Shown: piece by piece, positions 3,864-20,431 of the stretch
How positions within the stretch are numbered: the first letter of the stretch is position 1
Layout of the letters: the number at the start of each line of letters is the position of its first letter
DNA from: a virus
IMG/VR virus record: IMGVR_UViG_3300027985_001385
Location: 1 to 22,808 of that record
Strand: one strand, 5' to 3'
Length of the DNA: 22,808 nt
Translations under genes and position numbers: made by a program
Notes under the pieces: generated by a model
What the model was told of the DNA's origin: nothing
Database searches by the model: none
What the model saw: the letters and a program-made list of their open reading frames with translations, nothing else

Positions 3864-5093
3864 CTGAATACAACAGAAAAAATGGAGCAAATATCAATCG
3901 AAAAATTAGTTCCATATATAAATAATTCTAGGACGCATAGTCCCGAGCAACTTAAAAAGCTACAATCAAGCTTACGCGAGTTTGGTTTTGTAAATCCGAT
4001 TCTCATAGACAGCAAATTTAATATTATCGCAGGGCACGGACGTGTTCTCGCTGCAAAGGCAGAGGGAATGGCTGAAGTGCCTTGTGTTTTTGTTGACCAT
4101 TTATCAGACGCACAGAAAAAAGCCTACATCATAGCAGACAACCGTCTTGCTGAAGATGCAGGCTGGGATAAAGAATTATTAGCAGTTGAAATTGAAAACT
4201 TGAAGGAATTAGAGTTTGATATTTCGGAGCTTGGCTTTGAACTTGACGAGATTGATAATATTTTAAATTCTGGTGCTGATGTTACAGAAGATAATTTTGA
4301 CGAGCCTTTGCCGGAAACACCTATTACAAAGCAAGGCGATGTTTGGCTACTTGGTAGACACCAACTAATCTGTGGTGATAGCACAAAGCTTGAAACTTAC
4401 ACAAAACTTATGAACGGCAAGAAAGCAAACTTAGTTGTGACAGACCCGCCGTATAACGTCGCCTACGAGGGTACTGCCGGAACAATTCAGAATGACAATA
4501 TGGACGATAAAAAGTTCTATGAGTTTTTGCTTTTCGCTTATAAAGGAATGTATGAAAGCTTAACTGATGGTGGCTCAATTTATATTTTTCACGCAGACAG
4601 AGAAACTGTGAATTTTCGGCTTGCATTTAAAGACGCAGGCTTTTTTTGTCACCAGACTTGTATCTGGGTGAAGAATTCGCCGGTTTTGGGGCGCTGCGAT
4701 TATCAATATACTCACGAGCCTGTGCTTGTTGGCTGGAAACCAACAGCCGGGCATAAATTTTATGCCGACAGAAAGCAACGTACTACCTGGAACTTTGATA
4801 GGCCCACAAAATCAAAGTATCACCCAACAATGAAGCCGATTGCTCTTGTTGCTTATCCGATAACAAACTCTAGCTTAACTAATTCTATTGTCCTCGACCC
4901 CTTTGGTGGAAGTGGCTCAACGCTTATAGCTTGCGAACAAACGGACAGAATTTGCTACACAATTGAACTTGACGAAAAGTACGCTGATGTTATTGTTAAA
5001 AGATACATTGAGCAGACAGGTTCAGCTGATGGCGTGCTTTTGTTGAGAGATGGTGAGGAAATAAAGTACTCTGAGGTGGCTGATAATGACTAA
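3864..5093 (+). CDS. ParB-domain DNA methyltransferase (N6-adenine/N4-cytosine), probable CTG start
   Basis: The N-terminal ~130 residues form a ParB/sulfiredoxin-like domain with GHGR (51-54, counted from the ATG at 3882). The C-terminal part is an amino-methyltransferase: catalytic DPPY (188-191), HPTMKP (314-319), then SAM-binding FGGSGS (341-346). DPPY before FGGSG is the beta-class order. It transfers methyl from SAM to the exocyclic amine of A or C; phage versions commonly protect against host restriction. The first ATG (3882) lies 25 bases from the GGGAGG site, too far. An in-frame CTG at 3864 lies 7 bases from it and gives N-terminus (M)NTTEKMEQ, so I place the start there. The last 8 bases overlap the C5 methyltransferase gene. 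Target sequence cannot be predicted. Confidence 0.9.
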   Translation: MNTTEKMEQISIEKLVPYINNSRTHSPEQLKKLQSSLREFGFVNPILIDSKFNIIAGHGRVLAAKAEGMAEVPCVFVDHLSDAQKKAYIIADNRLAEDAGWDKELLAVEIENLKELEFDISELGFELDEIDNILNSGADVTEDNFDEPLPETPITKQGDVWLLGRHQLICGDSTKLETYTKLMNGKKANLVVTDPPYNVAYEGTAGTIQNDNMDDKKFYEFLLFAYKGMYESLTDGGSIYIFHADRETVNFRLAFKDAGFFCHQTCIWVKNSPVLGRCDYQYTHEPVLVGWKPTAGHKFYADRKQRTTWNFDRPTKSKYHPTMKPIALVAYPITNSSLTNSIVLDPFGGSGSTLIACEQTDRICYTIELDEKYADVIVKRYIEQTGSADGVLLLRDGEEIKYSEVADND

Positions 5094-7152
5094 TCAGGAT
5101 TTGACACGAAACCTTACGCTCGGCTCACTCTTTGATGGCTCAGGAGGTTTTCCTTTGGGAGGCTTGATTTCTGGTATTACCCCAATTTGGGCATCAGAAA
5201 TTGAGCCTTTTCCTATTCGTGTTACAACGAAAAGATTTCCTAATATAAAACATCTCGGTGATATTTCAACAATTAACGGTGCTGAAATTAAACCCGTTGA
5301 TATTATAACCTTTGGTTCACCTTGCACTGATATGTCAGTTGCAGGCAAAAGAGCCGGACTTATTGGCTCACAATCCGTCCTTTTTTATGAGGCAATTAGA
5401 ATTATTAAAGAAATGAGGTCGGCCACTAATGGCGAAAAACCAAGATTTATCGTGTGGGAGAACGTGCCTGGAGCATTCTCCTCAAACAAAGGTGAGGACT
5501 TCAAGGCAGTCCTTGACAGCATCGCAAAAATTAAAGATGAAACCCTATCTATTTCTAAACCTAACAAATGGATTGGTTCAGGCAGTATCGTGGGAGTTGA
5601 TTTCTCCATCGCATGGCGAACCCTTGATGCACAATACTGGGGAGTTCCCCAACGAAGAAAACGAATCTACCTTGTCGCAGATTTTGCAGACAAACGTGCA
5701 GGAAAAATACTATTTGAGTCCGAAGGCGTGTCAGGGCATTCTTCGAAGAGCCTCTGTCCGTGGCAAGGAACTGCCAACAGCGCTCAAACTTGCGTTGGAG
5801 AAACAAGCAAAATTGTCCTAAACGACCAAGGTGGTCAGCGAATAGATGTACTTAATAATTTATCGGCAACCCTTAGAGCCGAGGCTCATCACCCTCCTTG
5901 CGTAATGTTTGAAAACCACAGCCAAGACACTCGCTACAAAGAAATTAATATTGCACCGACCGTTTCTGCTACATACGGAACGGGTGGAAATAATCAGCCG
6001 TTTGTAACTTCTGCAGGCTTTTGCACAGAACATTCAGCAAATAGCCGTGGTATCGGTTATGAAGAAGAAACTTCTCCAACTCTCCGTGCTGGAGTTGTTC
6101 CGGCAACCGTTTCCTTTGAGGACACACCTAAAACTATGAAAATCCGCAGTGGCTGTAATGGAGGTGGCAAAGGTGCTTTAATTCAGGACAATAAATCTGC
6201 AACCCTTTCTTGTAATAATGACCAATCAATATTTATTCCACAAGCTTATGGCATCTGCTCTGATGGCAGTAATTCTATGAAATCAGACAACCCTCGCAGT
6301 GGTATTTACGAGGCTGATACTTCAAGAGCAATTGACGGAAATGGTGGAAATCCTTCTTGCAATCAAGGTGGGATAGCCATTGTGGAAAGCTATTCTTTGC
6401 AAGGTTCTATGATAGGTCGCAAGGACGATAATGGCCCTAACGGTGATGGAATTAACAAAGATGTAGCTTTTACTCTTAATACTACCGACCGACACGCAGT
6501 TTATTCTATGACAACGGGCAGTTTTATGCAAATTAATAAAGAAAAATCGCCAACACTTGCGTCAAGAGATTACAAAGACCCATCTGTTGTAACAGAACCT
6601 ATCTACGCAATTGACCGAGAAACTTTTAATTGTGGGCAGAATTTTGCAAGAAATCTTGGAATTGCTGAAAATGGTGTAGCATCTACACTGAATGCTCAAG
6701 GGCCTTCTGCAGTTGCTGAACCCTCTAGCTTTTACCCTCAAATGAAAGCTGAAAGTCAATGCTATCGTGATGATGGCATTTCAAACACACTTTTGAATGG
6801 AACTAACCCTGGCTTTCAAAACGGGATTGTTGAACCCAACTACACAGTTCGCAGATTAACCCCAAAGGAATGTGCTTTGCTACAAGGCTTTCCGATATGG
6901 TGGTGTGATAATCTTGAAACAGCAGAGCCAACTGAAGAAGAAATATTGTTCTGGTCAGAAGTTTTTGAAACACATAGAAAAATTATGGGTACAAGTACAA
7001 AGCCAAAAAGCAGACAGCAGATTATTAAATGGCTACAAAATCCTCACAGCGATAGTGCTGAGTACAAAATGTGGGGAAACGGAGTAGCACTTCCTTGCGT
7101 ATGTTTTGTCTTGAGTGGAATTGTGTTATTTACACAACAAAGCTGTAAATAA
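5086..7152 (+). CDS. C5-cytosine DNA methyltransferase with repeat-rich insert
   Basis: A 688-residue enzyme, much longer than the usual 300-450. C5-MTase motifs: I FDGSGGFPLGG (16-26), IV GSPC with catalytic Cys80, VI ENV (125-127), VIII QRRKR (189-193), IX RRLTPKECALLQGFP (589-603) and X GNGVALP (664-670). Between VIII and IX, where the target-recognition domain belongs, about 330 residues (256-585) carry roughly nine degenerate repeats of S-x-T-L, then ~8-10 residues, then P/hydrophobic (LSATLRAEAHHPP, TSPTLRAGVVPA, KSATLSCNNDQ, KSPTLASRDYKDP, VASTLNAQGPSA). All catalytic motifs are intact, so it is probably active. It overlaps the amino-methyltransferase gene by 8 bases, implying co-expression and joint modification of phage DNA. 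Confidence 0.92.
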   Translation: MTNQDLTRNLTLGSLFDGSGGFPLGGLISGITPIWASEIEPFPIRVTTKRFPNIKHLGDISTINGAEIKPVDIITFGSPCTDMSVAGKRAGLIGSQSVLFYEAIRIIKEMRSATNGEKPRFIVWENVPGAFSSNKGEDFKAVLDSIAKIKDETLSISKPNKWIGSGSIVGVDFSIAWRTLDAQYWGVPQRRKRIYLVADFADKRAGKILFESEGVSGHSSKSLCPWQGTANSAQTCVGETSKIVLNDQGGQRIDVLNNLSATLRAEAHHPPCVMFENHSQDTRYKEINIAPTVSATYGTGGNNQPFVTSAGFCTEHSANSRGIGYEEETSPTLRAGVVPATVSFEDTPKTMKIRSGCNGGGKGALIQDNKSATLSCNNDQSIFIPQAYGICSDGSNSMKSDNPRSGIYEADTSRAIDGNGGNPSCNQGGIAIVESYSLQGSMIGRKDDNGPNGDGINKDVAFTLNTTDRHAVYSMTTGSFMQINKEKSPTLASRDYKDPSVVTEPIYAIDRETFNCGQNFARNLGIAENGVASTLNAQGPSAVAEPSSFYPQMKAESQCYRDDGISNTLLNGTNPGFQNGIVEPNYTVRRLTPKECALLQGFPIWWCDNLETAEPTEEEILFWSEVFETHRKIMGTSTKPKSRQQIIKWLQNPHSDSAEYKMWGNGVALPCVCFVLSGIVLFTQQSCK

Positions 7153-7240: not shown

Positions 7241-7876
7241 ATGCAAATTAATTATAACTTGAAAGGTAATGCTCGCAAAGAACTGGTCAAGGCAATCAGT
7301 GAAATTACGGGAATACCAAGTAAATACAAGGGCGCGCCTACCTTTGCTTACGAAATTGGAGAAGTTATCGTTGATAAAAATGGCACTATTCAAGGTGCTA
7401 ACCAACAGCTGAAAAATCAGCTTGCTGAACAAGGCTTTGTTGCAGAGCCAACAGCTGAAATTGGTGTGAGCATTGATGTCCCAAAAGCTGACTTTACAGA
7501 CACGGCTATTGATAATCTTCAAAAACTAATAGCAAGCAAAGCTACTCTTATTAAAAAGGCAATCTGTACAGATAATCTTGATGTTGAGATAACTGAAGAA
7601 AGAATTAGCTTCCCTTGGTTCCCTTTTGGAGCAACGTCTGACGAAGTAAAAGCCTACACTCATTTCATAACAGCACTTTGTGATATGGCAAAAACACTCC
7701 AAAGAGTCAACGCTACCCAAAGGCCTGTAGAAAACGAGAAGTACGACTTTCGTTGTTTTCTTTTAAGGCTTGGTTTCATCGGCCCTGAGTATAAGGGAAT
7801 GAGAAAAATTTTGCTGAAGAACCTTGTTGGTTCGTCTGCTTTCAAGGAGGTTGTAAATAATGAGATTTCCAAGTAA
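7241..7876 (+). CDS. Prophage 'virulence-related' protein, amidoligase-like C-terminus
   Basis: A 211-residue soluble protein of a family often labelled virulence-related in Firmicutes prophages; the label carries no proven function. The opening MQINYNLKGNARKELVKAIS and ISFPWFPF (122-129) are recognisable. Residues 121-202 align without gaps to residues 214-295 of the amidoligase encoded about 0.3 kb downstream, sharing N-E-K, R, L-x-R-x-G-F-I-G-x-E and L-x-G-S-x-A. The upstream amidoligase catalytic motifs (E-x-E, H-x-H) are absent, so it is unlikely to be an enzyme alone and may be a partner or regulatory relative. Translation starts at the ATG behind a hairpin-buried ribosome site. It overlaps the DUF4314 gene by 17 bases. 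Confidence 0.85.
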   Translation: MQINYNLKGNARKELVKAISEITGIPSKYKGAPTFAYEIGEVIVDKNGTIQGANQQLKNQLAEQGFVAEPTAEIGVSIDVPKADFTDTAIDNLQKLIASKATLIKKAICTDNLDVEITEERISFPWFPFGATSDEVKAYTHFITALCDMAKTLQRVNATQRPVENEKYDFRCFLLRLGFIGPEYKGMRKILLKNLVGSSAFKEVVNNEISK

Positions 7877-8210: not shown

Positions 8211-9110
8211 ATGTTAGAATCGAGATTTGGCATTGAAATCGAGTTCACGGGAATCACAAGGGAAAAAGCTGCAGAGGTTACTGCACAGCACTTAAACGGA
8301 ACAGCAACTCGCACCTACGATGGTTATGACACTTACAAGGTTACAGCACCAGACAATAGGGTTTGGAAGTTAATGAGCGATGCCTCAATCATTTGCAAAC
8401 GCAAGGAAAACGGCAGAATTGTTTCAGCCGACAGGAGCTACAGCGTTGAGTTGGTCAGCCCAATTCTTACCTACAAAGAGGACATAGAAACCTTGCAGGA
8501 GCTTATTCGAAAGCTTAAAAAGGCTGGAGCGTTTGAAAATAACAGCTGTGGAATTCACCTTCACCTTGATGGCGCAAACCATACAGTTCGGAGCATTCGC
8601 AACTTTATAAACATAATTTCCTCCAAGAACGACCTTTTTTATAAAGCACTTGAGATAAACCCTGAAAGAATAAGATATTGCAAAAAAATGGATAGCCTTT
8701 TGGTTGATAAGCTAAATCGTAAAAAGCCAAAGACAATGGCTGAGATTGAGAGCCTTTGGTATGAGGGTTACAGCGAAAGCACCTCAAGGCATTATCACTC
8801 AAGCAGGTACCACTTTTTAAACCTCCACAGTTTTTTTACAGGTCATCACACGGTTGAATTAAGAGGGTTTAACAGCACCCTTCACGCTGGAAAAGTCAGA
8901 AGCTACATTGTTCTGGCTCTCGCCCTTAACCACCAAGCTTTAACTCAGAAATTTGCAAGTTCCAAAAAGCCACAAACTGACAATGAGAAATTTGCAATGA
9001 GAACCTACCTTAACCGAATTGGCTTTATCGGTGAGGAATTTGCAAACTGCAGAGAGCATTTAACTGCACACCTTGATGGGTCAGCGGCTTGGCGATTTCA
9101 GGTAGCATAA
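8211..9110 (+). CDS. Amidoligase family protein (glutamine synthetase-like fold)
   Basis: A 299-residue member of the Amidoligase_2 type. Visible catalytic pattern: RFGIEIEF with E9 and E11, VELVSP with E80, CGIHLHLDG with H116 and H118, and TVELRGF with E216 and R218, matching the metal- and nucleotide-binding residues of the glutamine synthetase/GCS fold. Such enzymes join a carboxylate to an amine using ATP. Published comparative work on amidoligases (Iyer and colleagues) linked phage members with cyclotransferases and suggested peptide or cell-wall modification; the substrate here is unknown. The C-terminal 82 residues match the virulence-related protein upstream. A GGGGCAAGG site precedes the ATG. 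GGCT follows after a hairpin. Confidence 0.9.
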   Translation: MLESRFGIEIEFTGITREKAAEVTAQHLNGTATRTYDGYDTYKVTAPDNRVWKLMSDASIICKRKENGRIVSADRSYSVELVSPILTYKEDIETLQELIRKLKKAGAFENNSCGIHLHLDGANHTVRSIRNFINIISSKNDLFYKALEINPERIRYCKKMDSLLVDKLNRKKPKTMAEIESLWYEGYSESTSRHYHSSRYHFLNLHSFFTGHHTVELRGFNSTLHAGKVRSYIVLALALNHQALTQKFASSKKPQTDNEKFAMRTYLNRIGFIGEEFANCREHLTAHLDGSAAWRFQVA

Positions 9111-9139: not shown

Positions 9140-9598
9140 ATGAATAATAAACTTTGCCGAGATAATAAGTATTATCTTGCCTACGGCAGCAACCTAAACC
9201 TTGAGCAAATGGCGCACCGTTGCCCTACGGCAAAGCCTGTTGGGGTAACTATCCTAAAGAACTACCAGTTGCTTTTTAGAGGGCAACACGGTGGTGCTGT
9301 GGCAACGGTTGAACCCCTAATAAATTCCAGAGTTCCCTGCTTGCTTTGGGAGATTACTCCTGATGATGAAATGGCACTTGATAGGTATGAGGGTTTTCCG
9401 TTCCTTTATTGCAAGGAAACGGTCAAGGTCAAACTTGGCAGAAAAACAGTTGAGGCTATGGTTTATATTATGAACGAGGGAAAGCCACTGAACTCGCCAA
9501 GCTGTTATTATTACAGTGTGATTTTACAAGGGTATAAGTCAGCTGGGTTTGACATTGAAATTCTAAAAAAGGCTGTGGAGGAATCAGTGGAAAGCTGA
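9140..9598 (+). CDS. Gamma-glutamylcyclotransferase family protein
   Basis: A 152-residue GGCT/AIG2-like protein. The signature YLAYGSNLN (residues 13-21) forms the substrate-binding loop, and ALDRYEGFP (79-87) carries the conserved acid (E84) expected to act as the general base. The barrel continues through VKLGRKTVEAMVYIM. Family enzymes release 5-oxoproline from gamma-glutamyl amines or peptides. With an amidoligase immediately upstream, the pair would make and break gamma-glutamyl-type bonds, suggesting control of a modified peptide or metabolite; this is inference. An AAGGAGG ribosome site precedes the ATG. The C-terminus (SYKSAGFD-like GYKSAGFDIEIL) is typical of phage members. Confidence 0.88.
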   Translation: MNNKLCRDNKYYLAYGSNLNLEQMAHRCPTAKPVGVTILKNYQLLFRGQHGGAVATVEPLINSRVPCLLWEITPDDEMALDRYEGFPFLYCKETVKVKLGRKTVEAMVYIMNEGKPLNSPSCYYYSVILQGYKSAGFDIEILKKAVEESVES

Positions 9599-9715: not shown

Positions 9716-10513
9716 TCATTTTGCGACGCTTGCAGTTTTTCTTTTGAGCATCAAAAAGAAGATAACAGAAAGCATGATGTTGAGTGCCAACACGACAATA
9801 CTTCCCTCTATTTTACAACTGCCGCCGGAAATAAGTGTATTTCCGCTAAACACCGTATTCAATAAATTAGGATAATCATCTGCCAACGAAACGCCACCGA
9901 GTATGATAGAACCGATCCCGTTCCAAACGGTATGGATCAGTATAGGAGTAATAAGCGAATCGGTATACTCAAGAACAAGTGATATAAAAAAGCTCATTGT
10001 AATTACATTGAGAACTGGAACAATACCTGCTTCAAAAGCTCCACCGTACATAACCGTGAACAAAGCTGTAGTAACGATAATAGCCGCTATCACATTGTAT
10101 TTGCTCTTAATCAGTTGATATAAATACCCCCTGACCAATAGCTCCTGCATAACTACATTCAGGAAACAGGAGATCAGCCATATAGCCAAGTATGAAATAT
10201 GATTTGTTCCGGAAAATTTCAGTGCCCCGGTTAAACACATGACAGAGACCGCAATGGCGAGCCATAAAACGCCAATTGCTATACCGACGCAAAGGTTAAG
10301 GACAGGTTTTTTAAAAGAAATAATTTTGATTTTTCTCTTTTCAATCAGCCAGAATATTAAGCTGAAAACGATAATATAGGCAAGCGGTAACACCTCTGCA
10401 CCAAGGCGCCAAATTGCAGGATTATCAGATGGTATATTACCCAATCCAGCAAAAGCTGCCCACCCTATAAAAAACAGGATGATTTTCAATGATGTGATTA
10501 AGAACTTCCTCAT
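9716..10513 (-). CDS. CPBP (Abi) family membrane protein with degenerate active site
   Basis: A 265-residue integral membrane protein with about eight hydrophobic segments, related to CPBP/Rce1 intramembrane proteases. The usual motifs are EExxxR, FxxxH and HxxxN. Here motif 1 reads QELLVR (Q123 in place of the first Glu), motif 2 reads FTVMY (Y156 in place of His) and motif 3 is intact (HTVWN, H194/N198). Two of the four expected catalytic or metal-site residues are changed, so it may be a pseudoprotease. CPBP members include bacteriocin immunity and abortive-infection (Abi) proteins. It lies antisense in the late operon, between GGCT and terL, with its own promoter (10558-10586) and likely terminator. 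A moron role in host protection is inferred. Confidence 0.88.
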   Translation of the reverse strand: MRKFLITSLKIILFFIGWAAFAGLGNIPSDNPAIWRLGAEVLPLAYIIVFSLIFWLIEKRKIKIISFKKPVLNLCVGIAIGVLWLAIAVSVMCLTGALKFSGTNHISYLAIWLISCFLNVVMQELLVRGYLYQLIKSKYNVIAAIIVTTALFTVMYGGAFEAGIVPVLNVITMSFFISLVLEYTDSLITPILIHTVWNGIGSIILGGVSLADDYPNLLNTVFSGNTLISGGSCKIEGSIVVLALNIMLSVIFFLMLKRKTASVAK

Positions 10514-13728: not shown

Positions 13729-13756
13729 GCATCTGTCTGTAGACAGGTGCTTTTTT
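13729..13756 (+). terminator. Intrinsic terminator between the DUF1643 gene and portal
   Basis: A 9-bp stem GCATCTGTC (13729-13737)/GACAGGTGC (13742-13750, one G-U pair), loop TGTA and six T at 13751-13756. It begins 6 bases after the DUF1643 stop and separates packaging genes from the head genes. Confidence 0.88.
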
Positions 13757-13785
13757 CATCCCCAAAAACAAGGAGGTATCAACAT

Positions 13786-15019
13786 ATGAACCCACTAAAA
13801 AACCTATTTCATTCAAGAGATAAACCCCGTAATGCCTTAAATGGGAGCAATTACAGCTTTTTCTTTGGACCAACCACCAGTGGAAAAACCGTAAATGAGC
13901 GAACGGCAATGCAAACCACAGCAGTTTATTCGTGTGTGAGAATACTCGCTGAAACCATAGCAAGCCTGCCACTTCAGCTTTATGAGTATACTGAAAATGG
14001 CAAAGAAAAATCGACCACCCACCCGCTATATAATCTGCTCCATAACGAGCCAAACCCCGAGATGACTTCATTTGTGTTCCGAGAAACACTTATGAGTCAT
14101 CTTTTATTATGGGGTAACGCATACGCACAGATTATTCGTGATGGGCGAGGTCAGGTTATTGCATTGTACCCACTTCTTCCAGATAAAATGACGGCGGACA
14201 GAACTTCAAATGGTGAGATTTATTATCAGTATCAAACCGACAAAGGCGAGGTCATTCTTCGAAAAGAAGAGGTTTTGCACATTCCCGGACTTGGCTTTGA
14301 TGGCTTGGTTGGCTATTCACCTATTGCAATGGCTAAAAACGCAATAGGAATGGCAATTGCTACTGAAGAATATGGTGCAAGCTTTTTCTCAAATGGAGCA
14401 AATCCCGGCGGAGTTCTCGAGCACCCTGGAGTTGTAAAAGACCCAAAACGTGTGCGTGAAAGTTGGTGTCTATCAAGGTAGCTCTAATGCACATAGGGTT
14501 GCAGTTTTAGAAGAGGGCATGAAATTTCAGCCGATAGGGATTCCACCAGAACAGGCACAATTTTTAGAAACAAGAAAGTTTCAGATAAATGAGATAGCTC
14601 GAATTTTCAGAATCCCACCTCATATGGTTGGAGATTTAGAAAAATCGAGCTTTTCAAATATAGAGCAACAGAGCCTCGAGTACGTTAAATACACACTTGA
14701 CCCTTGGGTTGTTCGCTGGGAACAGGCAATGCAAAAGGCTCTGCTTTCAACATCTGAAAAGCAAAAATACTTTGTAAAATTTAATGTTGATGGACTTTTA
14801 AGAGGTGACTACGCCTCAAGAATGGCTGGTTATGCAACAGGCAGACAGAATGGTTGGCTTTCAGTTAACGATATTCGTGAACTTGAAAACCTAAACCGCA
14901 TACCAACTGAGTTTGGTGGGGACTTGTATCTTGTAAATGGTGCTATGACTAAATTACAAGATGCAGGAATTTTCGCAAATACAACAAATACAGAAACGGA
15001 GGAAACAATAGATGAATAA
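13786..15019 (+). pseudogene. HK97-family portal gene, interrupted by a frameshift near 14467
   Basis: The ATG at 13786 follows AGGAGGT. Residues read as an HK97-type portal: MQTTAVYSCVRILAETIASLPL, LLLWGNAYAQIIRDG, EVLHIPGLGFDGLVGYSPI, NPGGVLEHPG. After RVRESW (to 14466) the frame runs into CLSR and a stop (14479-14481). The next frame, from 14468, resumes exactly where the portal should: VYQGSSNAHRVAVLEEGMKFQPIGIPPEQAQFLETRKF, FRIPPHMVGDLE, to the stop at 15017. Relatives have two residues (Asn plus Ser/Ala) between the Trp and the V/A-Y-Q-G, so about 5 bases are missing. The ATG at 14450 has no ribosome site. The portal is essential, so this is either a real inactivating deletion, an assembly error or, least likely, programmed shifting. 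Joined, it would be about 410 residues, the normal length. Confidence 0.88.
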
Positions 15020-17006: not shown

Positions 17007-17315
17007 ATGACGCTTATTGAAAAAGTAAAAGCAAATCTAATCCTCGAGCATAGTGAGGACGATGTACTTCTTCAAAATTACATCACAGCCGCAACAGCCT
17101 ATGCTGAAAGTTATCAAAAAAAGACAGAGGGATTTTATTCGGAAAACTCAATGCACCCAACCACCGAGCAAGCAGTAATAATGCTATCAAGCCATTTCTA
17201 TGAAAGTAGAGATGGCTCTACTGCTGGGTTTTTCTCTGATAATATTCAAGCGAGTGAACAAGTCTGGAATGTTGTGAATATGCTTTTGAGGCTAAATAAG
17301 GAGTTTTTAGTATGA
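17007..17315 (+). CDS. Head-tail connector protein (HK97 gp6-like)
   Basis: A 102-residue helical protein with the head-tail connector pattern: LIEKVKANLILEHSEDDVLLQNYITAATAYAESYQ, then TEQAVIMLSSHFYESRDG and a C-terminal VVNMLLRLNKEF. Members form a ring under the portal. It begins 108 bases after the capsid stop behind GAAAGGA and overlaps the next gene as ATGA at 17312-17315, so it starts the connector operon. Confidence 0.88.
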   Translation: MTLIEKVKANLILEHSEDDVLLQNYITAATAYAESYQKKTEGFYSENSMHPTTEQAVIMLSSHFYESRDGSTAGFFSDNIQASEQVWNVVNMLLRLNKEFLV

Positions 17316-17644
17316 GTTTTGGGAAATTAAATACACGAATTGATATTATAAGCACCGAGCCTGTTAAGGATAGCGAGGGTTTTGTGACTACTGGTGATAA
17401 TATTATCGCAAGTGTAAAAGCATATTTTGAGCAGAAGAACTCAACTGAAAAGTGGCTTAATATGTCGCAGAATAATTCTGTAAATGCACTATTCAGACTT
17501 CGGCATATTCCTAATATTGAAATCACCAACAAGCATATCATCGTTTGTGAGGGTAAGCGTTACAATATTTATTCGGTTGAGAATGTGAAAAACAAAGGTA
17601 TGTATTTTGAAATTTTGGTGGTGAGCGTTGATGGCAAAGTGTAA
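17312..17644 (+). CDS. Head closure / head-tail adaptor protein
   Basis: A 110-residue beta-rich protein of the SPP1 gp16-like adaptor type: GKLNTRIDIISTEPVKDSEGFVTTG at the start, AYFEQKNSTEKW, FRLRHIPNIEITNKHIIVCEGKRYNIYSVENV at the end. It plugs the portal-connector exit after packaging. It overlaps the connector by four bases and the next gene by about 14, so translation is coupled. Confidence 0.87.
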   Translation: MSFGKLNTRIDIISTEPVKDSEGFVTTGDNIIASVKAYFEQKNSTEKWLNMSQNNSVNALFRLRHIPNIEITNKHIIVCEGKRYNIYSVENVKNKGMYFEILVVSVDGKV

Positions 17645-18062
17645 TTTTTCTATGCCGGAGGATTTTCTTTCAAAGGTTTCTCGCCTTGCTGAAAAAACTG
17701 ATGAAATAATTCCAAAGGTGCTTGAGGCTGGTGGCGAGGTTGTTCTCACAAAGGTTAAAAGCAATCTGCAATCTGTGGTGGGCAATAACACAAAGCTAGA
17801 AAGCCGTTCCACTGGTCAGCTTGTTTCTACTCTTGGGGTTACTCCTGCAAAGCAAGATAAAGAGGGCAATTTTAATGTTAAGGTTGGGTTTGATGAGCCT
17901 CGTTCTGATGGATGCAGTAATGCTAAAATTGCAAATATTCTTGAATACGGGAAAAGTGGTCAGCCACCTAAGCCATTTTTAAAGCCTGCAAAAACGCAGA
18001 GCAAAAAGTCTTGTATTGATGCTATGAAAAACAAGTTGGAAAGTGAGATTGAAGGCCTATGA
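17631..18062 (+). CDS. HK97 gp10-type head-tail/tail completion protein
   Basis: A 143-residue protein with the HK97 gp10 signature: an N-terminal helix (EDFLSKVSRLAEKTDEIIPKVLEAGGEVVLTKVKSNL), TGQLVSTLGVTP, then KIANILEYGKSGQPPKPFLKPA, the family's most conserved block, and a last helix. I start at ATG 17631, with GGTGGTGAG a few bases upstream; TTG 17628 is a less likely alternative. It overlaps the adaptor gene and ends as ATGAG with the following gene. Confidence 0.88.
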   Translation: MAKCNFSMPEDFLSKVSRLAEKTDEIIPKVLEAGGEVVLTKVKSNLQSVVGNNTKLESRSTGQLVSTLGVTPAKQDKEGNFNVKVGFDEPRSDGCSNAKIANILEYGKSGQPPKPFLKPAKTQSKKSCIDAMKNKLESEIEGL

Positions 18063-18424
18063 GCATTTTATCTGAAATTAATACTCTTATAGAAACAATT
18101 AATATTCCCGTAGAAACAGGGGTATTCAGTGGTGTTCCTCCCGATGAGTATATTGTGATTACTCCACTCGTTGATACATTTGCAGTTTTTGGGGACAACT
18201 ATCCACTGCTTGAAGTTCAAGAGGTTAGGCTGTCACTTTTTAGCAAAAATAACTATATACAAAGAAAAAATCAGCTTGTAAGGCTTTTGTTACAGGCTGA
18301 TTTTACTATTACTGAAAGACGCTATGTAGGGCATGAAAATGATACTGGCTATCATAATTATGCGATTGATGTGGCGAAAGAAATTTATAATTTAAACCAG
18401 GATTTGACGCAGGAAAAGAACTAA
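18059..18424 (+). CDS. Tail terminator / minor tail protein
   Basis: A 121-residue protein in the tail-terminator position, between gp10 and the major tail protein. The N-terminal helix ILSEINTLIETINIPVETGVFSG, the strand EYIVITPL, the conserved LLEVQEVRLSLFSKNN and the helix KNQLVRLLLQADFTI fit the family that caps the tail tube. ATGA overlap with the preceding gene. The exact family label is less certain than the position-based role. Confidence 0.78.
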   Translation: MSILSEINTLIETINIPVETGVFSGVPPDEYIVITPLVDTFAVFGDNYPLLEVQEVRLSLFSKNNYIQRKNQLVRLLLQADFTITERRYVGHENDTGYHNYAIDVAKEIYNLNQDLTQEKN

Positions 18425-18456
18425 AAATTCAAACACTATAAGTGTGCGAAATGGGT

Positions 18457-18471
18457 CCAGCGTCACGCTGG
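18457..18471 (+). repeat. Short hairpin in the major tail protein leader
   Basis: CCAGCG, loop TCA, CGCTGG: a perfect 6-bp GC-rich stem, seven bases before the GGAGGG ribosome site. A smaller CACT-ATA-AGTG hairpin lies at 18434-18444. They may stabilise the abundant tail-tube mRNA; no T-run follows. Confidence 0.5.
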
Positions 18472-18489
18472 CGGAATGGAGGGAAATTA

Positions 18490-19065
18490 ATGGCACAAAT
18501 AGGACTAAAATATTTAATCTGCTCGGAGCTTACTGAAACAGAAAGCGTTGCAACCTATAACACCGGAATGGTTATGTCAAAGGCAATAAAGGCTGATATT
18601 TCTATTGAAATCAACGAAGGCAAGCTTTATGCCAATGATATGTTGGTTGAAAATATTAAGGAATTTAAGTCTGGCAAAGTTTCTCTAAACGGTGACCATT
18701 TAAGCTATGAGGTTTTAGCTTTGATTTTAGGGCATACCCTTTCAACGCTTACACCCGGAACGGAGCAAAAGCTTGTTGCAAAGGGTGATGATGACGGAAA
18801 GTGCGTCGGAGTAGGCTTTTATGCGACTACTATTAAAAATGGTGCTCGAAAATACAGAGCAATTTGGCTTACAAAAGTTAAGTTCGGAATTCCAAATGAA
18901 AGCCTTGAAACCAAAGGCGATGCAATTAATTTTCAGACACCAACAGTTGAGGGAACAATCCTCACCGATGTAACTGGGGTCTGGAAAGAGGAAGCTACCT
19001 TTGACACCGAGGCAAAAGCTGTTGCATGGCTTGACGGGCTTGCAAACATCGGAGGTGTAGGATAA
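18490..19065 (+). CDS. Major tail protein (phi13-type tail tube)
   Basis: A 191-residue beta-rich protein: MAQIGLKYLICSELTETES, MSKAIKADISIEINEGKLYANDMLVE, FKSGKVSLNGDHLSYEVLALILGH, GFYATTIKNGARKYRAIWLTKVKFGIPNES, DAINFQTPTVEGTI. These blocks match the phi13-type major tail protein that forms the tube. ATG 18490 is chosen because GGAGGG (18478-18483) lies 6 bases upstream; the open frame continues to 18442 but that part overlaps the leader hairpin. The tail chaperone starts directly at its stop. Confidence 0.92.
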   Translation: MAQIGLKYLICSELTETESVATYNTGMVMSKAIKADISIEINEGKLYANDMLVENIKEFKSGKVSLNGDHLSYEVLALILGHTLSTLTPGTEQKLVAKGDDDGKCVGVGFYATTIKNGARKYRAIWLTKVKFGIPNESLETKGDAINFQTPTVEGTILTDVTGVWKEEATFDTEAKAVAWLDGLANIGGVG

Positions 19066-19455
19066 ATGGATAACGACAGATGTTCGCAAATTTTAATCGG
19101 TGGAACAGAATATTCACTTGTTCTTACCACGAAAGCCACAAAGGAAATAGCTAAGCGTTATGGAGGACTTTCAAATCTCGGTGACAAGCTGATGAAGTCT
19201 GAAAATTTTGAAGAGGCCCTTGATGAGGTTGTTTGGCTGATTACACTTTTGGCAAATCAAGGAATTATGATTGATAATCTGCAAAATGGTGAGAAAAAGC
19301 CTTTGCTCACAGAGGAAAATGTGGAGCTACTCACTTCACCACTTGAACTTGCGACCTATAAGACGGCAATAACAGAGGCTATGTTTAAAGGAACAAAGCG
19401 GAATATTGAGTCGGAGTCTGAGGCTGAACCCTCAAAAAACACACAAGTCGGGTAG
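19066..19455 (+). CDS. Tail assembly chaperone, unshifted form (gpG-like)
   Basis: A 129-residue zero-frame product: GTEYSLVLTTKATKEIAKRYGGLSNLGDKL, EALDEVVWLITLLANQGIMI, LLTSPLELATYKTAITEAMFKGTKRN, then a low-complexity acidic linker (ESESEAEPSKN) and stop TAG at 19453. It occupies the gpG position between major tail protein and tape measure and chaperones tape-measure assembly. The slippery site at its 3' end makes the longer gpGT form from the same start. GGAGGTG precedes the ATG. Confidence 0.88.
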   Translation: MDNDRCSQILIGGTEYSLVLTTKATKEIAKRYGGLSNLGDKLMKSENFEEALDEVVWLITLLANQGIMIDNLQNGEKKPLLTEENVELLTSPLELATYKTAITEAMFKGTKRNIESESEAEPSKNTQVG

Positions 19456-19637
19456 AGGATGTTGAACTCTTTACCCGACTAATTTATTATGGAACTGCTC
19501 AGTTAAACCGTTCTGAAAATGAAGTGTGGTTAATGCCGATTGGAAAGTTGCTGGATTTGTGGACTTGTCACAAGCAGTTTATTGGGGTTGAAAAGGCGAA
19601 AAGAGAGGTTAGTATTGATGAGATTGTGCCGATTTAA
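19066..19637 (+). CDS. Tail assembly chaperone, -1 frameshifted fusion (gpGT-like)
   Basis: A -1 shift on A AAA AAC at 19434-19440 joins the first 125 codons to a second frame running from 19440 to the TAA at 19635-19637, giving about 190 residues. The added 65 residues (VEDVELFTRLIYYGTAQLNRSENEVWLMPIGKLLDLW, CHKQFIGVEKAKREVSIDEIVPI) match the well-conserved T domain that follows gpG in Firmicutes siphophages. This second frame has no start codon or ribosome site of its own, so it is expressed only by frameshifting. The lambda precedent shows that the ratio of short to long forms matters for tail assembly. Its stop overlaps the antisense CPBP stop. Confidence 0.88.
19434..19480 (+). promoter_or_regulatory. 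Programmed -1 frameshift element
   Basis: The slippery heptamer A AAA AAC (19434-19440) lies in the correct phase (TCA AAA AAC). After a 5-base spacer comes a perfect 9-bp stem, AGTCGGGTA (19446-19454)/TACCCGACT (19472-19480), with a 17-base loop. The zero-frame TAG stop overlaps the end of the 5' arm. Slippery site, spacer and stimulator all match the standard arrangement. Confidence 0.9.
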
Positions 19638-20431
19638 ATAAATGTGTTCATTTTAAAAGGTAAATGATGCTTTATTGCTGGTATCGAAATTAAAGTATAT
19701 AAGCACATAAGCACAAAGAAAATAATGTCGAAAGGTTGACCAGCTATTGAACCGCAAATATTGGAGGCTGTATGTATTAAAATCAAAGAGATGATGTCTT
19801 TTTTATAGTAAAGGATAATCGCATATGCCAAACCAATAATTGTAGGGAAAATAAACCTAAATATTGCTCCGCCTATAGATATTTCATTGTATAAAAAGTA
19901 TGCCGGCAAATGCATAAGACCAAATAATATTGCAGAAATGACTATTCCAACAGATATTTTTATATCATGCTCTTTAAGTCTAAATATTTCATTTGTGATA
20001 AACCCTCTAAAAATCAGTTCTTCAAAAACAGAAACGCCTAACAGCAATTTTATAGATTCACCAATCAATATCTGCCAAGAGTAATTATTAACAAAATGGC
20101 TATATACAATAGCGCCAATAGAAATTACAATACAGATACTTCCAATTATAACTGTATTTGGTGTAACTTGAAAATTCTCAGAGATTTTAAATTTGTACTG
20201 AAAAATAATTACAATAAAAATCAACAATGTTATAAAGCCACATACCAGTAAATTGTAAAAATTCTCACTAAACCAATACTGACGAAACTCATCGCTTAGT
20301 GGTAATATATGATAATAGAAGTCTAACGAAAATTTTCTGCTTGTGATAAATAAGCCAAGTGGCATATATGACAGCCACACAATAAATATTTTAAACCATA
20401 TAAAATATTGTTTATTCGATAATTGTTTCAT
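19634..20431 (-). CDS. CPBP (Abi) family intramembrane protease, intact motifs
   Basis: A 265-residue, AT-rich-coded membrane protein with about eight hydrophobic segments. All CPBP motifs are present: EELIFR (E137, E138, R142), FGLMH (F170, H174) and HTASN (H220, N224), so catalytic function is plausible. Family members act as CAAX-type proteases, bacteriocin maturation or immunity proteins, or Abi phage-resistance factors. It lies antisense between the tail chaperone and tape measure, normally adjacent genes. Its stop overlaps the gpGT stop (TTAA at 19634-19637). It has its own promoter (20473-20501) and an AAAGGA ribosome site 8 bases before the ATG. A moron active in the lysogen is the best reading; host protection is inferred. 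Confidence 0.92.
   Translation of the reverse strand: MKQLSNKQYFIWFKIFIVWLSYMPLGLFITSRKFSLDFYYHILPLSDEFRQYWFSENFYNLLVCGFITLLIFIVIIFQYKFKISENFQVTPNTVIIGSICIVISIGAIVYSHFVNNYSWQILIGESIKLLLGVSVFEELIFRGFITNEIFRLKEHDIKISVGIVISAILFGLMHLPAYFLYNEISIGGAIFRFIFPTIIGLAYAIILYYKKDIISLILIHTASNICGSIAGQPFDIIFFVLMCLYTLISIPAIKHHLPFKMNTFI

What the first reader, a model, noticed from the sequence alone, without database searches (positions are those of the whole stretch)
5851..6840. About nine S-x-T-L repeats replace the target-recognition region of the C5 methyltransferase
Between motifs VIII and IX the enzyme carries roughly 330 residues of repeated pattern (S-x-T-L, short variable loop, P/hydrophobic) separated by Gly/Asn-rich spacers. 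Each unit resembles the short segment that normally precedes motif IX. Repeats could provide several recognition specificities, as in multispecific phage methyltransferases, or evolve by recombination to evade changing restriction systems.
Basis: partly seen in the sequence, partly recalled or inferred. Interest (0 to 1): 0.55.

Follow-up and report, generated by a model that had tools for sequence, protein, structure and literature searches.

The report
Phage methyltransferase with nine recognition cassettes
A phage DNA-methylating enzyme carries a row of nine exchangeable short cassettes that look like DNA-reading units, so one enzyme may protect the phage from many bacterial restriction enzymes at once; in related phages the row holds one to twelve cassettes drawn from a shared set.

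Summary
Window ORF 5086-7149 (688 aa) is a phage C5-cytosine methyltransferase. Between motifs VIII and IX it carries nine cassettes of 30-46 aa (residues 243-582, window 5812-6831), each with a 'TL'-type core, which the literature describes as the hallmark of C5-MTase target-recognition domains (TRDs). Relatives show that the cassettes are real units: in 179 distinct variable regions I found 27 types, 1 to 12 per protein, 98 combinations; 1393 of 1408 hits cover at least 85% of their model. Homologous types mostly exclude each other (B 132, D 46, both 0). Enzymes with nearly identical catalytic halves carry different arrays (560 of 561 nt identical, then different cassettes), so arrays are exchanged by recombination. 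Cassette H matches a unit of the multispecific phi3T methyltransferase. Best explanation: an expanded multispecific phage C5-MTase, with cassettes as alternative TRDs giving several methylation targets and broad anti-restriction protection. The kind is known from Bacillus phages with fewer TRDs; size, slot organisation and spread make this a new variant. Not shown: that each cassette gives its own specificity. AlphaFold did not resolve the cassettes, and a three-unit pneumococcal phage enzyme has one published motif.

The parts
5086..5676 (+). C5-MTase catalytic half, motifs I-VIII (residues 1-197); motif IV reads GSPCTD, ENV motif WENVP, motif VIII VPQRRKR
   Evidence: Pfam PF00145 E 4.1e-39; M.HhaI by phmmer; boundary at motif VIII; motif names recalled
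5677..5811 (+). linker before the first cassette (residues 198-242)
5812..5907 (+). cassette A, core SATL
   Evidence: module HMM 67.7 bits; type found 154 times in 179 regions
5905..6006 (+). cassette B, core APTV; homologous to type D, never with it in one of the 179 proteins
6013..6111 (+). cassette C, core SPTL; absent in close relatives L005, L006, L008 and L010
6124..6240 (+). cassette E, core SATL
6247..6384 (+). cassette F, core SRAI here (family consensus SRTL); the most widespread type (161 hits); its relative F2 is the only cassette of the small natural enzyme L192
6394..6501 (+). cassette H, core AFTL; matches the second unit of the phi3T multispecific MTase; homologous to type H2, never with it in one of the 179 proteins
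6502..6591 (+). cassette I, core SPTL; homologous to types N and Y
6604..6717 (+). cassette J, core ASTL; homologous to J2
6730..6831 (+). cassette K, core SNTL; last cassette before motif IX
6850..7149 (+). motif IX-X part (RRLTPKECALLQGFP ... MWGNGVALPC)
   Evidence: PF00145 second piece 6727-6903
3882..5093 (+). ParB-N domain fused to an N6/N4 methylase; overlaps the start of the C5-MTase by 8 bases; conserved partner gene
   Evidence: PF01555 E 7.2e-31 and PF02195 E 4.1e-8; a homologue lies directly upstream in 139 of 160 eligible relatives

Best explanation
The enzyme is an expanded multispecific phage C5-cytosine DNA methyltransferase. One catalytic core, made by the two halves of the protein, is fed by nine alternative TRDs strung between motifs VIII and IX. 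Each cassette is one TRD built round a TL motif, with family-specific residues before and after it that read a short DNA target; only one cassette docks on the DNA at a time. The phage thereby methylates several short targets and is protected from several host type II restriction systems. Recombination between phages adds, removes or replaces whole cassettes in a fairly fixed set of slots, so protection can be re-tuned without touching the catalytic core. Shown: catalytic family, cassette units, variation and exchange. Inferred: TRD function, by position, TL motif and one TRD match. Not shown: the targets, their number, one-at-a-time docking and the protection.
For: Core: PF00145. The small natural single-cassette relative L192 models on M.HhaI with Z 24.4, rmsd 3.6, 248 residues aligned. 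Position and motif: the cassettes fill most of the stretch between VIII and IX, and a TL-type core is conserved in the 25 cassette families laid out (types M and Z, one sequence each, were not; in type U the script anchored on the wrong pair and the core reads SSL by eye; type S reads AL). The TL motif, its place 10-50 residues before motif IX and its role in target reading are described in PMC2413257 (sections 3 and 6 read). TRD match: H2 and H hit the phi3T multispecific MTase at PAFTVNTIDRHGVA (E 4.5e-6 and 1.6e-5 in a three-sequence search). Units: 1393 of 1408 hits cover at least 85% of the model; B/D 132/46/0 both, H/H2 126/41/0, N/I 109/55/0, J/J2 52/75/1, F/F2 154/18/7. Number: 1-12 per protein over 179 regions; L192 with one F2 cassette is a normal-size enzyme of 383 aa. 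Exchange: L046/L240 have 560 of 561 nt identical in motifs I-VIII, then different arrays; L220/L130 are identical or nearly so up to J2, then carry Y against N. 14 of 48 pairs with at least 98% catalytic identity differ in architecture. On a catalytic tree of 171 rows, presence/absence needs at least 22 changes for B, 22 for J2 and 21 for D. Distant scaffolds (47-71% catalytic identity, nine enzymes compared) carry some of the same cassettes, in part in other orders. Context: phage genes all round; none of 20 window proteins scanned with Pfam looks like a restriction nuclease, though the phage helicase at 307-1677 also hits PF04851, a helicase-type 'ResIII' model. Bacillus phage multispecific MTases with several TRDs are reported to widen protection (PMC5923457 passage; PMC8936443 passages).
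Against: No methylation data. AlphaFold gives pLDDT under 50 for residues 214-588 and about 25-55 for the single cassette of L192, so no TRD fold is shown. Only type H/H2 matches a unit of an enzyme known as multispecific, over 13-14 residues; the other matches are weak. The pneumococcal phage SpSL1 enzyme has three APT[LI] units, yet one motif is published for it, so units may outnumber targets. No cassette with at least 92% nt identity was found between enzymes under 75% catalytic nt identity in 63,616 comparisons. Order is nearly fixed in the near clade (226 type pairs seen in one order, 21 in both). Presence/absence changes were not compared with shuffled labels. Some regions hold a 45-residue linker that is also of TRD size, though without a TL core here.
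Confidence: 0.8

Rival explanations
1. Only some cassettes are working TRDs; the others are worn-out or silent remnants kept as spacer, so the enzyme has one to three targets.
For: In the window protein the F core is SRAI while the family consensus is SRTL. L003 ends its array in a 21-aa remnant-like unit M. SpSL1 has three units and one published motif.
Against: Within families the TL pair and flanks are strongly conserved (mean column conservation 0.69-0.89 in 25 families). 1393 of 1408 hits are near full length. Module identity tracks catalytic identity instead of decaying faster.
Confidence: 0.12
2. The cassettes together form one extended DNA-binding surface that reads one long or loose target.
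For: Cassette order is nearly fixed and homologous types exclude each other, as expected if neighbours touch.
Against: One to twelve units are tolerated, a one-unit enzyme exists, and units drop in and out between enzymes with nearly identical cores.
Confidence: 0.05
3. The cassettes do not read DNA targets but act as decoy, scaffold or protein-binding repeats; recognition sits elsewhere, for instance in the 45-residue linker.
For: The structure is unresolved, and the linker 198-242 also lies between motifs VIII and IX.
Against: The linker has no TL core, and the TL motif is the published TRD hallmark. H matches a phi3T unit.
Confidence: 0.03

Closest known systems
Multispecific C5-MTases of Bacillus SPbeta-group phages (M.phi3TI, M.SPRI, M.H2I, M.phiBssHII; names from reference lists and recall)
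   Same: Phage-encoded C5-MTase, several TRDs in tandem between motifs VIII and IX, a TL motif in each. Cassette H matches the second unit of the phi3T enzyme.
   Different: The phi3T enzyme has two such units in its variable region; this family has up to 12, drawn from at least 27 types, in slots with mostly exclusive homologous types. A ParB-methylase gene precedes it in most relatives (139 of 160). Kinship of the two catalytic cores was not tested.
M.HhaI / M.HaeIII, single-TRD type II C5-MTases
   Same: Catalytic fold (L192 model Z 24.4 to M.HhaI); the TL motif GIAITL in the M.HhaI TRD.
   Different: They have one TRD and a partner restriction enzyme (recalled); here nine cassettes, and no restriction nuclease among 20 window proteins scanned.
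SpSL1 pneumococcal phage m5C MTase (P0006)
   Same: Phage C5-MTase with three APT[LI] units before motif IX.
   Different: 360 aa with an M.HhaI-like core; one published motif, printed as RCGRC in the text and RCRGC in a table and in the record.
PHROG phrog_38038 ('unknown function') and phrog_116 (DNA methyltransferase)
   Same: phrog_38038 matches in four stretches (E 2e-112; best one residues 507-686); phrog_116 matches residues 3-679 with the cassettes as an insert.
   Different: The PHROG table gives no function for phrog_38038.

Membership tests
C5-cytosine DNA methyltransferase (PF00145) | conserved catalytic motifs I-X with one core in two halves | tested here: met
   PF00145 over its cut-off; in 66 aligned sequences PC, ENV and QRRxR are invariant and GNG nearly so
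Multispecific phage C5-MTase | several TRD-size units in tandem between motifs VIII and IX | tested here: met
   nine cassettes of 30-46 aa at residues 243-582
Multispecific phage C5-MTase | a TL motif in each unit | tested here: met
   TL-type core in the 25 families laid out; in the window protein 8 of 9 fit [SAP]xT[LIV] and F reads SRAI
Multispecific phage C5-MTase | units homologous to TRDs of proven specificity | tested here: inconclusive
   only H/H2 match a phi3T unit, over 13-14 residues; which phi3T target that unit reads was not found in a held paper
Multispecific phage C5-MTase | units work independently and can be removed one at a time | tested here: inconclusive
   natural gain, loss and replacement of whole units; activity not testable here
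Multispecific phage C5-MTase | more than one methylated target | not testable with these tools
   needs methylation sequencing
Multispecific phage C5-MTase | phage-encoded, without its own restriction enzyme | tested here: met
   terminase, portal, protease and capsid genes around it; no restriction nuclease among 20 window proteins scanned with Pfam; ORFs 17007-19455 and most small ORFs were not scanned, and the window is a fragment
Single-TRD C5-MTase (M.HhaI type) | one TRD before motif IX | tested here: not met
   nine units in the window protein; the relative L192 does have one

The most novel reading that the evidence does not exclude
A common pool of interchangeable TRD cassettes is shared by Bacillota phages, and each enzyme is a combination of up to a dozen of them in a slot order, with homologous cassettes competing for the same slot. 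Each array then works as a record of the restriction systems the phage lineage has met, and a single enzyme could methylate around ten different targets, more than any multispecific MTase I know of (recalled).
Probability: 0.5. Interest if true: 0.78.

Novelty: new variant of a known kind. Interest (0 to 1): 0.58.

Why it matters
If each cassette is a working TRD, this is a natural parts kit for cytosine-methylation specificity and an anti-restriction device whose make-up can be read from sequence. It would let one predict which restriction systems a phage escapes, and it offers many new TRDs for methylation tools and for transforming poorly tractable Clostridia. It may have been overlooked in methylome work: a large human gut phage methylome study states that it did not analyse m5C (PMC10477858 passage). 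The family is common in the collections: 581 of 584 pattern-matched viral contig stretches and 412 of 438 stretches in one-per-species genomes encode a relative. Among 146 genomes of one host order, 11 had a match to the cassette region, so it is not universal.

Tried and rejected
Full-length AlphaFold model of the window protein: the core is good, but the cassettes (214-588) are under pLDDT 50, so no statement on their fold. The model of the single-cassette relative L192 gave the same for its cassette, and the Foldseek/VIA matches to M.HhaI rest mainly on the core. No known fold is claimed or denied for the cassettes.

Recent transfer of single cassettes between diverged enzymes, by nucleotide identity: none in 63,616 module comparisons at the thresholds used. 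Exchange is seen between enzymes with near-identical cores and as altered order in distant scaffolds.

'A cassette type never repeats in one protein' holds in the near clade (1 of 179 has a repeat, against 149 expected from random draws), but it is not a general rule: the distant enzyme L280 has two A and two S cassettes. Fresh tandem duplication: rejected, as only weak two-copy DNA repeats were found.

Assigning DNA targets to cassettes by the published N-TL/C-TL trimers: the trimers were read off but no safe assignment resulted, as the rules cover mainly four-base targets and the spacing differs. Control C5-MTases: delimiting the variable region failed in 8 of 11 (the other three gave 0, 0 and 1), so whole-protein counts were used.

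Rows dropped: 20 homologues without a clean motif VIII or IX match were left out of the 179; 171 of 179 entered the catalytic comparison and 171 the tree. Two homologue sets kept only the best 80 of 581 and of 412 loci and a third the best 80 of 198, which biases towards close relatives. Module families were seeded by eye from printed homologues, so the number 27 is a minimum and depends on the cut-offs. In the slot statistics overlapping hits were settled by best score, so two types cannot both be counted on one stretch.

Literature: nine searches on this question and one on the phage group Heliusvirales in an open-licence library; the listings showed no paper on this family or on enzymes with this many TRDs, and beyond the passages and sections cited the listed papers were not opened. 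The primary Trautner-group papers were not seen (one tried and not held) and are known here from reference lists and recall.

Full report
What is there. The window is an IMG/VR phage fragment. ORF 5086-7149 encodes a 688-aa C5-cytosine methyltransferase (PF00145, E 4.1e-39). It sits between a ParB-N6/N4 methylase gene that overlaps it by 8 bases and amidoligase, terminase, portal, protease and capsid genes. No restriction nuclease was found among the 20 window proteins scanned with Pfam; the phage helicase at 307-1677 hits the helicase-type model PF04851 ('Type III restriction enzyme, res subunit') beside SNF2 and is a DNA helicase in PHROGs. The variable region between motifs VIII and IX spans residues 198-588: a 45-residue linker, nine cassettes (A B C E F H I J K, residues 243-582) and six residues before motif IX. 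Each cassette has a TL-type core; 7 [SA]xTL matches stand against 0.21 expected by shuffling and none in the rest of the protein. Eleven other C5-MTases from three host genomes have 0-3 matches to a similar pattern, while the 179 family members have a median of 7.

The cassettes are units. I collected relatives from viral contigs, genomes and named phages, and reduced them, with the window protein, to 179 distinct variable regions of 99-491 aa; 20 homologues without clean motifs were dropped. 27 cassette types were defined by HMMs seeded by eye; about 20% of the residues, including the linker, stayed uncovered. Proteins carry 1 to 12 cassettes, most often 7 or 8, in 98 combinations. 1393 of 1408 cassette hits cover at least 85% of the model, so units come and go whole. 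Profile comparison shows homologous pairs F/F2, N/Y, J/J2, N/I, B/D and H/H2. Several exclude each other: B only 132, D only 46, both 0; H 126, H2 41, both 0; N 109, I 55, both 0; J 52, J2 75, both 1. F/F2 is less strict, with 7 carrying both. They behave as alternatives for one slot. Order is nearly fixed: 226 type pairs occur in one order only and 21 in both.

The cassettes turn over. Against the window protein, L003 (94% identical in the catalytic half) has an extra type G and the short unit M in place of K, and L005 and L006 lack C. Of 48 pairs with at least 98% catalytic identity, 14 differ in architecture. L046 and L240 share 560 of 561 nt in motifs I-VIII and 134 of 135 nt in the linker; their shared cassettes are then only 77-93% identical and the arrays differ (A C B E R F H N P against A B E F S H N), which marks a recombination breakpoint at the entry to the array. 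L220 and L130 are nearly identical up to J2 and then carry Y against N. On a tree of the catalytic parts of 171 enzymes the minimum numbers of presence/absence changes are high (B 22, J2 22, D 21, X 21, N 20; not compared with shuffled labels). More distant enzymes (nine compared, 47-71% catalytic identity) carry some of the same cassettes, in part in other orders or repeated: H before F in L284; X S S A C A B H, with weaker hits between, in L280. L279 has F before A (the A hit is weak, 16 bits), but there the cassettes lie in another frame than the catalytic half, so that gene may be broken. Against easy recent transfer: no cassette of at least 92% nt identity was found between enzymes with less than 75% catalytic nt identity in 63,616 comparisons.

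What they most likely do. In C5-MTases the TRD lies between motifs VIII and IX (recalled) and contains a TL motif 10-50 residues before motif IX, with DNA-reading residues on either side (PMC2413257, sections 3 and 6 read). Tandem TRDs giving several targets are known from Bacillus phages (PMC8936443 passages), where they widen protection against restriction (PMC5923457 passage). The cassettes sit in the right place, have the TL motif as their common element, and differ by family on both sides of it. H and H2 match the second unit of the phi3T multispecific enzyme. A natural one-cassette relative, L192 with F2 only, has the size of an ordinary C5-MTase (383 aa) and its model matches M.HhaI with Z 24.4, mainly through the core. 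I therefore read the array as nine alternative TRDs serving one catalytic core. The number of targets is not shown. The SpSL1 phage enzyme, with three similar units and one published motif (passages of PMC6755750; units), warns that units and targets need not match one to one.

What was not resolved. AlphaFold could not place the cassettes, either in the full protein (pLDDT under 50 for 214-588) or in L192. This fits units that need DNA or compete for one site, but equally fits a shallow, gappy alignment. No DNA targets could be assigned.

Known or new. The kind, a multispecific phage C5-MTase, has been known since the 1980s (reference lists seen; details recalled). New, as far as the searches reach, are the scale (up to 12 units), the large shared set of cassette types with slot-like alternatives, the wide spread (viral contigs; mostly Clostridia genomes by record title; Streptococcus and gut Clostridia phages), and the usual ParB-methylase partner (139 of 160 eligible relatives). 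Nine searches of an open-licence library listed no description of the family; subscription papers are not covered. One gut phage methylome study says it left m5C out, so such enzymes could easily be missed.

Noticed in passing
window 13747-14481 and 14450-15019, +: The portal protein is split over two overlapping frames: the first matches PF04860 positions 2-182, the second 186-321. A frameshift, a sequencing error or a true split gene.
   Followed up: no
window 9716-10513 and 19634-20431, -: Two Rce1-like CAAX protease genes lie on the minus strand inside the otherwise plus-strand packaging/structural region.
   Followed up: no
window 7241-7876, 8211-9110 and 9140-9598, +: Two amidoligase-family genes (phrog_2443; the second also PF12224) followed by a gamma-glutamyl cyclotransferase gene, right after the C5-MTase.
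   Followed up: no
window 3882-5093, +: A ParB-N domain fused to an N6/N4 methylase overlaps the C5-MTase start by 8 bases; a homologue directly precedes the C5-MTase in 139 of 160 eligible relatives, so the two may act as one modification unit.
   Followed up: partly
window 5429-5821, +: The +1 frame over the catalytic half is open for 130 aa; across 171 relatives the longest open run in that frame has a median of 127 aa against 50 in the +2 frame. Possibly only a by-product of conserved codons; coding was not tested.
   Followed up: partly
loci L278 (genome G116) and L279 (genome G079): In these relatives the catalytic half and the cassette half lie in different frames, meeting near the linker; L278 also has a stop in the catalytic half. 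Decay, sequence error or a split enzyme.
   Followed up: partly
genome G001 (record of L091), frames at C1:1574247-1575959, 5043767-5045209 and 6249590-6251008: One Anaerocolumna genome holds three members of the family with different cassette arrays (frames of 689, 585 and 589 aa).
   Followed up: partly
loci L282, L290, L292: Distant C5-MTase scaffolds hold TL units that match none of the 27 cassette types at the cut-offs used (for example SGTLVASGAGMNRPGG and ARTLTARGDGSP), so the full set of cassettes is larger.
   Followed up: no
P0001, PHROG scan: phrog_864, labelled DNA primase, matches residues 68-371 with E 1.1e-22; probably a label carried over from a fusion or a mixed cluster.
   Followed up: no
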